From Solirubrobacter deserti (lineage in GTDB: Bacteria; Actinomycetota; Thermoleophilia; Solirubrobacterales; Solirubrobacteraceae): a stretch of DNA of 64,000 nt. Under the pieces are notes generated by a model that was given only the letters and a program-made list of their open reading frames with translations, searched no databases and was not told where the DNA came from. This document shows, piece after piece, positions 7,072-12,496 of the stretch. Position 1 is the stretch's first letter. Every line of letters starts with the position of its first letter. The stretch is taken from the NCBI RefSeq assembly GCF_027587175.1, contig NZ_JAPCID010000008.1:1-64000 (forward strand). The letters are read 5' to 3'. The position numbers and the translations under genes are program-made.

Positions 7072-7889
7072 CGCTTCACCGCCACGACCTCGAGGTACTC
7101 GGCCGGCACGGCGATGGCCCCGTCGCGATTGCGGGCCGCGCGCTTGACGACCTCGATCAGGTCATGCTCGAGCGCGGCGGCGCCCGCGGGCCCGACGGCC
7201 TCGAACGCCTTGACGGTCGGGCCGTACCACTCGCGCAGCGTGTAGATGAACTCCGCGGGGCGGCGGAAGCGCCACGTGAACGTGCGCCGGCGCGTGCTGA
7301 CGAGCTCCACGTCGTCGCCCAGCAACTCCGTGATGCCGGCCTCGGTGCCCCAGCGCAGCGGGGAGGCGACACCCGGGGGCGGCGGGACGTGCCCGGCCGT
7401 CGTGCGGAACAGCTCACCGAGGAAGCCCTCCGGCGTCCACGAGGCGAGCGCGATCAGGCCGCCGGGGCGCGTCGTGCGGACGAGCTCGGACGCCGCCTTG
7501 GCCTGGTCGGGCGCGAACATCGCGCCGAAGGTCGAGATGACGGCGTCGAACTCGCCGTCCCCGTACGGCAGCGCCTCGGCGTCGGCCTCGGCGAACTCGA
7601 TGTTCAGGCGCTCCGCGCGCGCCCGCTCGCGGCCGCGCTCGAGCAACTCCGGGACGTAGTCCGTGCACGTGACGTCACAGCCGCAGCGCGCGGCGGCGAT
7701 CGCCGCGTTGCCGGTGCCGCCCGCTACGTCAAGCACGCGTGACCCGGCGATCAGGTCCGCGCTGTCGACCAGCAGCTCGGCGACGATATGGATCAGAGCA
7801 GCGATCACGCCGAAGTCGCCGCTGGCCCACATGGCCTGCTGACGCGACTTGACCGTGGCGAGATCGATGGCCTGGGGGATGATTGTCAC
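7068..7889 (-). CDS. SAM-dependent methyltransferase (class I)
   Basis: 273 residues. The SAM-binding motif I is VLDVAGGTGNAAIAAA, followed by the acidic end of strand 2 (TCTDYVPELLERG), motif II-type FAEADAEALPYGDGEFDAV, and the family's ASWTPEGFLGELF. It resembles the UbiE/methyltransf_11 group. GTG 7889 is chosen because AGGAG lies 7 bases upstream; earlier residues in the frame are non-coding. The substrate is unknown. Coupling to the secreted haloperoxidase-like gene is notable because the two act in different compartments. Confidence 0.82.
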   Translation of the reverse strand: MTIIPQAIDLATVKSRQQAMWASGDFGVIAALIHIVAELLVDSADLIAGSRVLDVAGGTGNAAIAAARCGCDVTCTDYVPELLERGRERARAERLNIEFAEADAEALPYGDGEFDAVISTFGAMFAPDQAKAASELVRTTRPGGLIALASWTPEGFLGELFRTTAGHVPPPPGVASPLRWGTEAGITELLGDDVELVSTRRRTFTWRFRRPAEFIYTLREWYGPTVKAFEAVGPAGAAALEHDLIEVVKRAARNRDGAIAVPAEYLEVVAVKR

Positions 7890-7968
7890 TGGTTGGCTCC
7901 TGGGGAGGAAAGGGGAGGAGCGCGCATGGTCCCGGGGGCCGGTTTCAGCGCGGTAACAGCGCGTCGTG

Positions 7969-7974
7969 TACGGT
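7969..7974 (+). promoter_or_regulatory. -10 element (TACGGT) placing a CTG start for the SARP regulator
   Basis: TACGGT plus 7 bases leads exactly to CTG 7982, the point where homology to AfsR-type regulators begins. No ATG or GTG lies in frame nearby. Confidence 0.45.
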
Positions 7975-7981
7975 CGCGTCA

Positions 7982-10900
7982 CTGGACCACGAATTCCGCA
8001 TCCTCGGACCGCTGGAGGTGCTCGACGCCGACGGCGTCGTGACCCTGGGCGGCGCTCGGCAGCGCGCGCTGCTGGCCGTGCTGCTGCTGCACGCGAACGA
8101 GACGCTCAGCGCCGATCGCCTGATCGACGAGCTGTGGGGCGACGCGCCGCCGCCCACCGCCGCCAAGACCGTGCAGGTCTACATCTCGCGCCTGCGCCGC
8201 GCGCTGAAGGACCCGGCGATGATCGCCACGCGAGAGCCCGGGTACGCGCTGCGGCTCGACCGCGAGCGCCTGGACGCCCACCGCTTCGAGCGGATGATCG
8301 CCGAGGGACGCGCCGAGCTCGCGGCCGGGCAGCCCGGCCGCGCCGCCGCCACGCTCGACAGCGCGCTCTCGTTGTGGCGGGGCACGCCGCTCGCCGACCT
8401 CGCCGACGAGCGCTTCGCCGAGCGCGAGCGGTCGCGCCTCGAGGACCTGCGCGTCACGGCGCTCGAGCAGCTCACGGAGGCGGAGCTCGCGCTGGGGCAG
8501 CACGCGCACCTGCTGGAGCGGCTCGAACGCCTCGTCGCCGAGCACCCGTACCGCGAGCGCTTCCGCGCGCAGCTGATGCTCGCGCTCTACCGCTGCGACC
8601 GACAGGCCGACGCGCTCGCCGCCTACCGCGACGCGCGCCGCAGGCTCGCGGACGAGCTCGGCATCGAGCCGGGGGAGCGGCTGCGCGAGCTCGAGCGGGC
8701 GATCCTCACACAGGACCCGCGGCTGGATCTCGCCCCGGTCACGCCCGTGCCCGCGGCGGAGGTCCTCGCGGGCGCGTTCGTCGGCCGCGAGCGCGAGCTG
8801 GGCGCGCTGATCGCCGGGCTCGACGACGCCGTCGCGGGCCAGGGGCGCCTGTTCCTGCTCGTGGGGGAGCCGGGGATCGGCAAGAGCCGGCTCGCGGAGG
8901 AGCTGAGCGCGCAGGCGCGCTCGCGCGGCGCGCAGGTGCTCGTCGGCCGCTGCTGGGAGGCGGGCGGCGCGCCGGCGTACTGGCCGTGGGTGCAGTCGTT
9001 GCGCGGGTATGTGCGCCGGGCTGACCCCGACACCTTGCGGGCCCAGCTCGGCCCCGGCGCGGTCGACGTCGCCCAGCTGCTGCCGGAGCTGCGGACGGTG
9101 CTCCCGGACCTGCCGCCGGCGCCCGCCGTCGAGTCCGAAGGCGCGCGCTTCCGGCTGTTCGACTCGCTGACGGCGTTCCTGCACAGCCTGGCGGCCGCCC
9201 AACCGCTCGTGCTCGTGCTCGACGACCTGCACGCCGCCGACGAGCCGTCCCTGCTGCTGCTGCGGTTCGTCGCGCGCGAGCTGGGGCACAGCCGCGTGCT
9301 GATCGTCGGCGCCTTCCGCGACGTCGACCCGACGGTCTCCGAGCCGCTCCAGCGTGCCGTGGCCGAGCTCACGCGCGAGCCCCTCACGCGTTCGCTGCCG
9401 CTGACCGGCCTGTCCCAGGCCGACGTCGCCCAGTTCCTGGAGCCCGCCTCCGCGCCGCCCGAGCTCGTCGCCGCGGTCCACGCCGAGACCGAGGGCAACC
9501 CGCTGTTCGTCGGCGAGATCGTCCGCCTGCTCGGCAAGGAGGGCCGGGTGACGATCCCGCACAGCATCCGCGACACGATCGGCCGCCGGCTGCGCCATCT
9601 CTCCGACGAGTGCAACGAGCTCCTGCTGTACGCGTCGGTGCTCGGCCGCGAGTTCGACTTGACCGTGCTCGCGCGCGTCAGCGGGCACGACCGCGGCAGC
9701 GTGCTCGAGCTGCTCGACGAGGCGATGCAGGCCCGGGTCGTCTCCGACGTGCCGGGCTCGATCGGGCGTATGCGCTTCGCGCACGCGCTGATCCGCGACG
9801 CCGCCTACCGCTCGCTGGCGCGGGCGCGGCGGCTGGAGCTGCACCGCCGCGTGGGGGCGGCGCTGGAGGCCGTCCACCAGGGCGACCTGGAGCCGCACCT
9901 GGCCGAGGTCGCCCACCACTTCTTCCTCGGGGGCGCGCCGGAGGCGGTCGAGTACGCGTCCCGCGCGGGCGCCCGCGCCGTCGCGCTGCACGCCTACGAG
10001 GAGGCGGTGCGCCTGTACGAGATCGGGCTCGCCGCGCTGCACAACGCGACGCCCGTCGAGCACTGCCGGCTGCTGCTCGCGCTCGGGGACGCGCAGGGCC
10101 GCCAGGGCGACGACGTGCGCGCGAAGGCGACGTTCCTGCGCGCCACCGAGCTGGCCCGCACGGCGGGGGAGGCGGAGCTGTTCGCGCGCGCCGCCGCCGG
10201 GTACGGCGGGCGCTTCCTGTGGAGCCACGGACTCACCGACGAGCGGCTCGTGCCGCTGCTGGAGGAGGGCGTCGCGACCGTGGGCAGCCAGGACAGCGCG
10301 CTGCGCGTCCGGCTGCTCTCACGCCTGGCCGCGGCGCTGCGCCACGGCCCGACGCGGGCGCGGCGCGAGGTGCTGATGGGCGAGGCGATCGAGATGGCGC
10401 GCCGGATCGGCGACCCGGTCACGATCGCGTCCGCGCTGACCGCCGCCGAGTCGGCGCTGCACGCGCCGCACACGGCGCGCCAGCGGCTGGCGAACGCGGG
10501 CGAGATCGTCGAGCTGGCGACGGTCGCCGGCGACCGCGAGCGGCTCTTCGACGGGCACGAGCACGCGTTCTGGGCGTCCTGGGAGCTCGGCGACCCGGAG
10601 CGGCGGGGGCGCGAGCTGCTGGAGATGACGCGCTGCGCGCACGATCTGCGCCAGCCCGCGCAGCTGTGGATGCTGGCCGCGGCGCACGCGACGTTCGCGC
10701 TCGCCCAGGGGCGCTTCGACGAGGCGCCGGAGCTGATCCGGCGCGCGGCGGAGATCGGCGAGCCCGTGCTGGCCTGGAACGCCGGGGCGGCGCGCACCTT
10801 GCAGCGCTTCCTGCTGTGCTGCGAGCGCGGCGGGCTGGAGGAGTACCTGGCCGAGGTGCGCGACGACGAGCCCGCGTTCCCGTCACCGCTCGTGCATCGC

Positions 10901-11416
10901 TCCGTGCTCGCGCACGGCTACGCGCGGCTCGGGCGCCTGGAGGAGGCGGCGCCGCTCGTGGCTGAGATCACCAGCCACGACCTGGCGGACTGGCACGTCG
11001 ACGAGCAGTGGTTCTGCAGCATCTGCCTGCTGGCGGAGACGTGCGCGCGGCTCGACGACCCGGCTTGCGCCGCGTGCCTGTACGAGCTGCTGGCGCCGTA
11101 CGCGGACCACAACGCGGTGGCCGTGCCGGAGATGGCGATGGACTCGACCGCGCGGCCGCTCGGCATCCTCGCCACGCTGCTCGAGCGCTATGACGAGGCG
11201 GAGGAGCACTTCCGCGCGGCGGCGGCGATGAACGAGCGCATGGGCGCGCGCGGCTGGCTCGCCCACACGTGGGCCGAGCACGCGGCGCTGCGGCAGCGGC
11301 GCGGGGACCGCGCCACCGAGCTCGTGGCGCAGGCCGAGGCGACCTACCGCGAGCTCGGCATGACGGGAGAAGCGGCTAGTCGTTACCGCCGCCCGCGCCC
11401 CAGGCTCCCGCGGTGA
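7982..11416 (+). CDS. AfsR/SARP-type regulator with BTAD, AAA ATPase and TPR-like region
   Basis: About 1144 residues. It opens with an OmpR-like winged helix (FRILGPLEVLDADGVVTLGG ... VYISRLRRAL), then a BTAD helical domain (to about 245, ending LADELGIEPGERL). A STAND/AAA ATPase follows with Walker A GEPGIGKSRL near residue 294 and Walker B LVLVLDDLHAADEP; the remainder is a long helical repeat region. Such proteins act as nucleotide-gated transcription activators, often of secondary metabolism. The start is unusual: the only in-frame standard start is TTG 7883, which would add non-conserved residues, whereas CTG 7982 lies 7 bases after a TACGGT -10. It is divergent from the methyltransferase gene. 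Confidence 0.85.
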   Translation: MDHEFRILGPLEVLDADGVVTLGGARQRALLAVLLLHANETLSADRLIDELWGDAPPPTAAKTVQVYISRLRRALKDPAMIATREPGYALRLDRERLDAHRFERMIAEGRAELAAGQPGRAAATLDSALSLWRGTPLADLADERFAERERSRLEDLRVTALEQLTEAELALGQHAHLLERLERLVAEHPYRERFRAQLMLALYRCDRQADALAAYRDARRRLADELGIEPGERLRELERAILTQDPRLDLAPVTPVPAAEVLAGAFVGRERELGALIAGLDDAVAGQGRLFLLVGEPGIGKSRLAEELSAQARSRGAQVLVGRCWEAGGAPAYWPWVQSLRGYVRRADPDTLRAQLGPGAVDVAQLLPELRTVLPDLPPAPAVESEGARFRLFDSLTAFLHSLAAAQPLVLVLDDLHAADEPSLLLLRFVARELGHSRVLIVGAFRDVDPTVSEPLQRAVAELTREPLTRSLPLTGLSQADVAQFLEPASAPPELVAAVHAETEGNPLFVGEIVRLLGKEGRVTIPHSIRDTIGRRLRHLSDECNELLLYASVLGREFDLTVLARVSGHDRGSVLELLDEAMQARVVSDVPGSIGRMRFAHALIRDAAYRSLARARRLELHRRVGAALEAVHQGDLEPHLAEVAHHFFLGGAPEAVEYASRAGARAVALHAYEEAVRLYEIGLAALHNATPVEHCRLLLALGDAQGRQGDDVRAKATFLRATELARTAGEAELFARAAAGYGGRFLWSHGLTDERLVPLLEEGVATVGSQDSALRVRLLSRLAAALRHGPTRARREVLMGEAIEMARRIGDPVTIASALTAAESALHAPHTARQRLANAGEIVELATVAGDRERLFDGHEHAFWASWELGDPERRGRELLEMTRCAHDLRQPAQLWMLAAAHATFALAQGRFDEAPELIRRAAEIGEPVLAWNAGAARTLQRFLLCCERGGLEEYLAEVRDDEPAFPSPLVHRSVLAHGYARLGRLEEAAPLVAEITSHDLADWHVDEQWFCSICLLAETCARLDDPACAACLYELLAPYADHNAVAVPEMAMDSTARPLGILATLLERYDEAEEHFRAAAAMNERMGARGWLAHTWAEHAALRQRRGDRATELVAQAEATYRELGMTGEAASRYRRPRPRLPR

Positions 11417-11465
11417 ACGCGAGAATCACGGCCAGCAGGCAGATCGCAACCCAAGTCATGCTCAT
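11376..11465 (-). CDS. Leaderless transmembrane microprotein (29 residues)
   Basis: Translates to a single hydrophobic helix (TWVAICLLAVILAFTAGAW) with a tiny polar tail ending GGGND. The ATG at 11465 lies 6 bases after a TACACT -10 (11477-11472), matching the leaderless pattern of many neighbours; a second in-frame ATG lies two codons later. The gene overlaps the last 41 bases of the regulator gene on the opposite strand. I do not recognise a family. Single-helix microproteins often modulate membrane partners, but that is inference. Confidence 0.5.
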   Translation of the reverse strand: MSMTWVAICLLAVILAFTAGAWGAGGGND

Positions 11466-11471
11466 GGCGAC

Positions 11472-11477
11472 AGTGTA
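11472..11477 (-). promoter_or_regulatory. -10 element (TACACT) of the microprotein gene
   Basis: TACACT followed by 6 bases and ATG 11465. No clear -35 is visible. Confidence 0.45.
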
Positions 11478-11517
11478 GGTCGGATGATCGGGGTGGGGCG
11501 GAGGGGATGTCCAGACC

Positions 11518-12084
11518 TCAATGTGGGTGGTCCCCGCTCGTGGCCGCGGGTGGGCGCGACTCCTCGGCGAGGCTGGTGATCGTCAGCTGCCCACGCGCCG
11601 CGTCCTCGAGGACGCCGGTCGCCTCCTCGGACGAGCGCGCGTACAGCTCGACCAGCAGGTGGACGACGATCTGCTCGTCCTCGTGCTTGTGGAAGCGGAC
11701 GTGGGTGAAGAACTCGCGCGTGCCGTGGTCGCCGAACGCGGCGTAGGCGAGCGCGTCCGCGGCCTCCGGGCCCGAGCACGTCTCGACGGACTCCGCGTCC
11801 ACGGTCACGGTGCAGGAAGCCACCCAGGGCGTGCCCACCACCATCCGCTCCCAGCGGTCCTCGACCGGCTCGATGCGGTCGTTGTGGAAGACCAGGTGCG
11901 GCTGGTCGTGCATGCAGTCGAGGCACTGGACGACGGCTTCCTGCAGCTCGTCGACGACCTCGGCGCGGCGCCCGGATTCAGGGTCGATCCGGTGGATGCC
12001 CTCGTAATGGACCTGGACCTCGAGGTCCTGTGACCAGCAGCGGTAGCACCGCAGCCACGATCCGATCGGTCCTGCAGTCGACAT
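11518..12084 (-). CDS. Protein of unknown function with two CxxC pairs
   Basis: 188 residues. Two cysteine pairs, LRCYRCW near residue 14 and CLDCMHDQ near residue 52, could form a zinc ribbon. The following half contains TREFFTHVRFHKHEDEQIVVH, suggesting a beta-rich domain, and the C-terminus is Ser/Pro/His-rich. I recognise no family. ATG 12084 is chosen because it lies 8 bases after a TAGAAT -10; the longer frame upstream runs through the divergent lipoprotein gene and is a shadow. Confidence 0.6.
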   Translation of the reverse strand: MSTAGPIGSWLRCYRCWSQDLEVQVHYEGIHRIDPESGRRAEVVDELQEAVVQCLDCMHDQPHLVFHNDRIEPVEDRWERMVVGTPWVASCTVTVDAESVETCSGPEAADALAYAAFGDHGTREFFTHVRFHKHEDEQIVVHLLVELYARSSEEATGVLEDAARGQLTITSLAEESRPPAATSGDHPH

Positions 12085-12092
12085 GCGACGCC

Positions 12093-12102
12093 ATTCTATG
12101 CT
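12093..12102. promoter_or_regulatory. Divergent overlapping -10 elements
   Basis: Minus-strand TAGAAT (12098-12093) is 8 bases from ATG 12084. Plus-strand TATGCT (12097-12102) is 7 bases from GTG 12110. The hexamers share a TA, the same arrangement as at 4159-4168. Confidence 0.5.
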
Positions 12103-12109
12103 CCGCCCG

Positions 12110-12496
12110 GTGCGTGGCCTGCTCGTCGCCGTTTTGCTCGTCGCGATCGGCGTCTGCGGGTGCGGCGGGGGCCCGTCGGACCAAGAGCAGGTACAGACCA
12201 CCGTGGAGGCCTTCGGGCGCGCCACCGCCGCCAAGGACTACCAGCGGCTGTGCGACGAGCTGCTGTCGCCCAAGCTCGTCGAGGAGGTCGCGTCCTCCGG
12301 GCTGCCGTGCGAGGCCGCGCTGCGCCAGGGCCTGGGTGAGGTGCGCGCGCCGACGCTGACCATCGGGAAGATCACGGTCGATGACGACCGTGCGACCGCC
12401 GAGGTCAACAGCGCGGCGCAGGGGCAGTCGCCGTCGCGGGACACGCTGCAGCTCGAGCGCGTCGACGACGCCTGGCGGATCGCGTCATTGCGCTGA
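12110..12496 (+). CDS. Lipoprotein with NTF2-like domain
   Basis: 128 residues: a lipoprotein signal (LLVAVLLVAIGVCGCGGG) with a lipobox-type Cys, then an NTF2-like fold whose first helix is VQTTVEAFGRATAAKDYQRL and whose final strand is QLERVDDAWRIASL. Such small lipoproteins are common in Solirubrobacterales-like genomes and may bind small ligands or partners; no active site is evident. GTG 12110 is preferred over ATG 12083 or 12098 because it sits exactly 7 bases after the TATGCT -10 and starts cleanly at the signal peptide. Confidence 0.7.
   Translation: MRGLLVAVLLVAIGVCGCGGGPSDQEQVQTTVEAFGRATAAKDYQRLCDELLSPKLVEEVASSGLPCEAALRQGLGEVRAPTLTIGKITVDDDRATAEVNSAAQGQSPSRDTLQLERVDDAWRIASLR

What the first reader, a model, noticed from the sequence alone, without database searches (positions are those of the whole stretch)
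11376..11477. Leaderless 29-residue membrane microprotein antisense to the SARP gene end
A near-ideal TACACT-N6-ATG leads into a single hydrophobic helix, and the gene overlaps the regulator's 3' end. It is too short for standard annotation.
Basis: seen in the sequence. Interest (0 to 1): 0.5.

Follow-up and report, generated by a model that had tools for sequence, protein, structure and literature searches.

The report
Genus-specific leaderless membrane microprotein gene
A tiny gene for a 29-residue single-helix membrane protein looks real and conserved in the soil genus Solirubrobacter, but it sits beside different genes in different species, so its overlap with the neighbouring regulator gene is probably incidental and its function is still unproven.

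Summary
In detail: window 11376-11465 (-) is a 29-codon ATG ORF with one hydrophobic helix, TACACT lies 6 nt before the ATG, and the ORF overlaps the last 41 nt of the SARP gene. It is unlikely to be a chance ORF. Short homologues (25-29 aa) were found in 6 of 7 Solirubrobacter genomes held (5 of 6 species); no convincing one outside the genus. All 5 distinct copies have TANNCTG with TANNCT 6-7 nt before the ATG, as do 9 of 9850 ATGs in 725 kb of this genome. Substitutions are more conservative than chance in frame in 8 of 10 pairs, in the testable alternative frame in 0 of 6.

The SARP overlap is incidental: only S. deserti and S. taibaiensis carry the gene there; two species carry it 3' of a quinone-oxidoreductase-like gene, one 3' of an HbpS-like gene. 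Best reading: a self-contained leaderless gene for a trans-acting single-span membrane microprotein, probably an accessory or regulatory helix of a larger membrane protein. Transcription start, translation, partner and function are inferred. A new family of a known kind.

The parts
11376..11465 (-). microprotein ORF, 29 codons plus TAG; single hydrophobic helix about residues 5-22
   Evidence: homologues; hydropathy
11472..11477 (-). -10 element TACACT (shared by the family as TANNCTG), 6 nt from the ATG
   Evidence: background rate
11466..11471 (-). 6-nt spacer GTCGCC; predicted transcription start at or next to the ATG; no Shine-Dalgarno-like sequence seen by eye
   Evidence: sequence; start inferred from spacing
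11376..11416 (.). 41-nt convergent overlap with the 3' end of the SARP-type ORF (7883-11416, +)
   Evidence: overlap also in S. taibaiensis; not at the G001, G003 and G005 loci
11518..12084 (-). upstream co-directional gene (188 aa, no Pfam match at E<=0.01, 90-98% identical in the other species of the genus); its stop ends 40 nt before the -10. Context only, not a conserved partner

Best explanation
A stand-alone leaderless gene. RNA polymerase recognises the TANNCTG -10 and starts at or next to the ATG; the ribosome initiates on the 5'-terminal ATG without a Shine-Dalgarno; the 25-29 residue product inserts as one membrane helix. It acts in trans, most likely by packing a face of small residues (C/S9, A12, A/S16, G20) against a helix of a larger membrane protein (or itself), as an accessory or regulatory subunit. 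Shown by sequence comparison: conserved ORF, conserved -10/ATG, coding-type substitutions, unconserved neighbourhood. Inferred: transcription start, translation, membrane insertion, helix packing, trans action, partner class.
For: 6 of 7 genus genomes carry one short homologue each. With the single sequence as query: G061 2.7e-14, G004 2.7e-11, G005 0.0065, G003 0.012, G001 0.049. 5 of 5 distinct copies have TANNCTG 6-7 nt before the ATG, in three unrelated contexts, against 9 of 9850 ATGs; the copies were picked by protein match and ORF length, before the -10 was looked at. Permutation test with stop-free null: 8 of 10 pairs p<0.05 in frame; full length G000/G004 p 0.00025, G003/G001 p 0.0065; frame +2, testable in 6 of 10 pairs, p 0.21-0.94; frame +1 closed by a stop in all 10. 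Same-genome signal: TANNNT 6-10 nt upstream gives 50 hits at 615 in-frame ATGs and 4 hits at 440 out-of-frame ATGs. Kyte-Doolittle 19-residue maxima 2.24-2.60 in the five. Columns 9, 12, 16, 20 fall in an 80-degree arc; 40 of 1820 position sets do so.
Against: No expression data. The single-sequence E-values for G005, G003 and G001 are weak, and a rejected match (L006, 0.0488, inside a 184-aa frame) ranks between them; the much better profile E-values (2.8e-12 or better) are circular, since these five sequences built the profile. dN/dS is unimpressive: G000/G004 pN 0.12, pS 0.37, but outside the SARP overlap only 2 synonymous and 5 nonsynonymous changes; G003/G001 0.07 and 0.11; across loci pN 0.36-0.41, pS 0.39-0.52. 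Two pairs with G005 are not significant (p 0.065, 0.14), and pairs are not independent. Synonymous change in G003/G001 (0.11) is lower than in the neighbouring gene (0.29), so some constraint may be at nucleotide level. The small-residue helical moment is not significant (p 0.50) and adding column 21 removes the face result (0.26). No copy found in G002 at E<=1. A sigma-70-like pair TGGACA-N18-GATCAT at 11513-11484 (9 of 12 matches; shuffles mean 0.0) could give a leader of about 11-13 nt here; that stretch has no counterpart in S. taibaiensis.
Confidence: 0.6

Rival explanations
1. The transcript is a cis-antisense or convergent regulator of the SARP gene; the ORF is secondary.
For: 41-nt overlap in S. 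deserti and S. taibaiensis.
Against: The gene exists away from any SARP overlap in G001, G003 and G005 (in G001 the nearest SARP-like matches, 27-29% identical, lie more than 4 kb away); the protein frame is conserved across most pairs of loci.
Confidence: 0.07
2. A small regulatory RNA, or dual-function RNA, whose nucleotide sequence is the conserved object.
For: Low synonymous change in G003/G001; an RNAalifold structure can be drawn.
Against: Covariation term is unfavourable (+0.72) and 2 of 22 pairs show a two-sided change; no Rfam match up to E 1 in 11000-12200; in-frame conservative substitutions. Codon bias in a well-expressed gene could also lower synonymous change (inference).
Confidence: 0.12
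3. A small toxic or lytic membrane peptide (type I toxin-like, or holin/spanin-like).
For: Size and a single hydrophobic helix; PHROG Rz-like spanin matches in 2 of 5 members at E 0.44 at best, which is chance level.
Against: No relative confirmed in viral contigs (58 pattern matches, 0 confirmed); one short copy per genome in 5 of 6 species; an antitoxin was not searched for.
Confidence: 0.12
4. A chance ORF with a chance -10.
For: About 0.5 such coincidences expected in 725 kb.
Against: Same ORF type and -10 at three unrelated loci.
Confidence: 0.03

Closest known systems
Leaderless small proteins of mycobacteria (Shell et al. 2015, PMC4633059; abstract and passages seen)
   Same: Actinobacterial, small, predicted translation from a 5'-terminal ATG; the paper reports 49 small leaderless ORFs in M. 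[quoted passage not shown]
   Different: Another class of the phylum; similar protein sequence at different loci; membrane helix; no transcript evidence here
Single-helix accessory subunits such as CydX (PMC4325964, abstract and outline seen), AcrZ (PMC7267776, start of abstract in a listing), KdpF (recalled)
   Same: Very small, one hydrophobic helix, few conserved residues
   Different: No sequence-family match; the gene directly upstream is not an oxidase, pump or transporter gene in the contexts examined

Membership tests
Leaderless small protein gene | -10 element at a distance that puts the start of transcription at the start codon | tested here: met
   5 of 5 distinct copies, TANNCT with 6-7 nt spacer; background 9 of 9850 for TANNCTG
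Leaderless small protein gene | mRNA 5' end at the start codon and ribosome occupancy | not testable with these tools
   no RNA or ribosome data
Leaderless small protein gene | frame conserved as protein | tested here: met
   8 of 10 pairs p<0.05; weaker by dN/dS
CydX / KdpF-type accessory subunit | sequence-family match | tested here: not met
   Pfam: no family for any of 5 members at E<=10; NCBIfam: only two pilin models, one member each, E 0.031 and 0.14
CydX / KdpF-type accessory subunit | encoded in the operon of its partner complex | tested here: not met
   three different upstream genes: unknown 188-aa protein, zinc-type dehydrogenase, HbpS-like protein
SARP cis-antisense regulator | conserved overlap with the SARP gene | tested here: not met
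   overlap only in G000, G061 (S. deserti) and G004 (S. taibaiensis)

The most novel reading that the evidence does not exclude
A minimal, self-contained gene of roughly 100 nt (a -10 hexamer plus ORF, no leader) that has relocated between the 3' ends of unrelated genes within one genus, in 2 of 5 distinct copies (G004, G005) using the upstream gene's TAA stop as the first three bases of its -10 (TAAGCT). Leaderlessness would make such gene birth and relocation easy, because no leader or ribosome site has to travel with it.
Probability: 0.3. Interest if true: 0.6.

Novelty: new member of a known kind. Interest (0 to 1): 0.42.

Why it matters
It gives a sequence-supported, directly testable case of a leaderless membrane microprotein in Solirubrobacter, a genus for which two searches of the held paper library found no paper with microprotein or small open reading frames. 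Its changing location with constant -10/ATG anatomy makes the question of how minimal genes arise and move testable, and shows that joining -10 spacing with frame conservation can find genes that length cut-offs may miss.

Tried and rejected
Family libraries gave nothing usable: Pfam none; NCBIfam pilin models E 0.031 and 0.14; PHROGs spanin E 0.44 at best; PDB one hit, a viral glycoprotein chain at E 0.35, taken as chance.

Wider searches with the 5-row profile. Order, 232 genomes: 105 have a match at E<=1; the six genus copies score 2.8e-12 or better, the next best is E 0.0044 inside a 335-aa frame; the rest are weak and partial, some of them in short frames of 20-64 aa. Class, 399 genomes at E<=0.01: four genus genomes and one match in a 323-aa frame. 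Phylum, 396 genomes: own genome and three partial matches in frames of 109-674 aa, E 0.0009-0.0025. Class and phylum were samples. 61 weak-match loci (not all weak matches were fetched) were rescanned for a leaderless 20-70 aa ORF within 200 nt of the locus middle, which in a few contig-edge loci is not the match: one found, a charged 39-aa ORF, not a member. So genus restriction is what was seen, not proven.

The genome-contig scan found 2 relatives, both known from the genus search; its one strict peptide pattern can miss others. A DNA pattern modelled on the core found G001 and G003 only. The better matches of the zinc-dehydrogenase in G002, G004 and G005 have no leaderless-type ORF within 350 nt 3' of them; G000 and G061 have no match at E<=1e-60. 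RNA reading: weak; in the alignment used the G005 ATG is out of register by 6 nt because its protein is two residues shorter, so its pair counts are rough. Helical moment test negative. A first permutation test penalised stops in the null and was replaced by a stop-free one. Match L006 (E 0.0488, 184-aa frame) and others in long frames were dropped before the family of five was set up.

Full report
What is there. The minus strand carries a 29-codon ORF at 11376-11465 with TACACT at 11472-11477 and a 6-nt spacer to the ATG. The convergent gene 7883-11416 has BTAD, Trans_reg_C and AAA_16 domains, so the SARP-type label is fair; the overlap is 41 nt. The window is G000:C107:1-64000 of a 7.09-Mb, 129-contig assembly. 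The same-species genome G061 has the contig length of NZ_QPKJ02000006.1, Solirubrobacter sp. CPCC 204708, the type strain of S. deserti (PMC10722151, passages seen). G004 likewise matches the contig length of S. taibaiensis KCTC 29222.

Is it more than chance? In 724,707 bases of this genome 9087 starts open a 20-70 aa ORF; 273 have a hydrophobic segment, 17 a TANNNT 5-9 nt upstream, 2 both, with about 0.5 expected if independent. That alone proves little. Conservation does more. One short copy is found in each of 6 of 7 genus genomes: G061 identical; G004 76% identical at the same locus; G003 MSSTLVAICLFAVIISFLAGSSFMGK; G001 MNSTLVAICLFAVIISFLAGSAFMNK; G005 MALLACSLLAVVVSFTVGAWFSGRG; none in G002 at E<=1. 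By single-sequence search the G005, G003 and G001 matches are weak (E 0.0065, 0.012, 0.049); the strong profile scores are circular because these rows built the profile. What supports them is independent of that: they were picked by protein match and ORF length, yet all 5 distinct copies have TANNCTG with 6 or 7 nt between TANNCT and the ATG, while 46 of 9850 ATGs in the sampled 725 kb have any TANNNT there and 9 have TANNCTG.

Is the frame selected? Moving the observed substitutions at random within the first 22 codons, rejecting stops, gives less conservative proteins than seen: 8 of 10 pairs p<0.05, the exceptions being G003/G005 (0.065) and G001/G005 (0.14). Frame +2 is testable in 6 of 10 pairs, p 0.21-0.94; frame +1 is closed in all 10. 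The pairs are not independent. dN/dS is less convincing: between loci pN 0.36-0.41 and pS 0.39-0.52. Synonymous change in G003/G001 is lower than in the adjacent gene (0.11 against 0.29), so a nucleotide-level constraint cannot be excluded; an RNA structure is not supported.

Does this organism use leaderless starts? In 531 heuristic genes, TANNNT 6-10 nt upstream gives 50 hits at 615 in-frame ATGs and 4 hits at 440 out-of-frame ATGs in the same zones. This fits leaderless expression being common, as shown by experiment in mycobacteria (PMC4633059, abstract and passages). The microprotein's own 5' end is not mapped, and a sigma-70-like pair at 11513-11484 could add a start about 11-13 nt upstream in this species; S. 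taibaiensis lacks that stretch.

Neighbourhood. In G000, G061 and G004 the gene lies between a 188-aa conserved gene (present in all 7 genomes, 90-98% identical in other species) and the SARP. In G001 and G003 the 188-aa gene is followed by an unrelated gene and the microprotein lies directly 3' of a zinc-type dehydrogenase / quinone-oxidoreductase-like gene; in G005 it lies 3' of an HbpS-like gene. In G004 and G005 the TAA stop of the upstream gene is the first triplet of the TAAGCT -10. Identity to the window protein (76, 62-64, 52%) falls in the same order as identity of the 188-aa protein (98, 95, 94%), compatible with vertical descent plus relocation; differential loss of paralogues is not excluded. 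The changing neighbourhood argues against cis-antisense control of the SARP and against a fixed operon partner.

How it probably works. Shown: a conserved hydrophobic stretch with A12, V13, F17 and G20 invariant in the five rows and only small residues in columns 9, 12, 16 and 20, which lie in an 80-degree arc (40 of 1820 sets; the broader moment test was negative, p 0.50, and column 21, also all small, does not fit). Inferred: a single membrane helix that packs closely against another helix, as an accessory or regulatory subunit acting in trans.

Known or new? It resembles leaderless small proteins and may work like CydX- or AcrZ-type helices, but fails the sequence-family and operon tests for such subunits. 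It is a new family, seen here only in one genus, of a known kind. Searches for Solirubrobacter with microprotein or with small open reading frames found no paper; Thermoleophilia with leaderless found one general paper on translation initiation, PMC10783764, seen only in the listing.

Noticed in passing
G000:C11 + 86452 (outside the window): A second leaderless-type micro-ORF with a hydrophobic helix (TACGCT, N9, ATG, 41 aa) in the 725-kb sample.
   Followed up: no
window 11518-12084 (-) and 12083-12496 (+): A 188-aa protein without Pfam match, 90-98% identical in other species of the genus, head-to-head with a gene that looks lipoprotein-like by eye, in all 7 genomes.
   Followed up: partly
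window 7883-11416 (+): The SARP-type gene with the microprotein lies 3' of the 188-aa gene only in G000, G061 and G004; G001, G003, G005 and G002 have other sequence there.
   Followed up: partly
window 11484-11513 (-): A sigma-70-like pair TGGACA-N18-GATCAT just upstream of the -10 (9 of 12 matches, shuffles mean 0.0), without counterpart in S. taibaiensis.
   Followed up: partly
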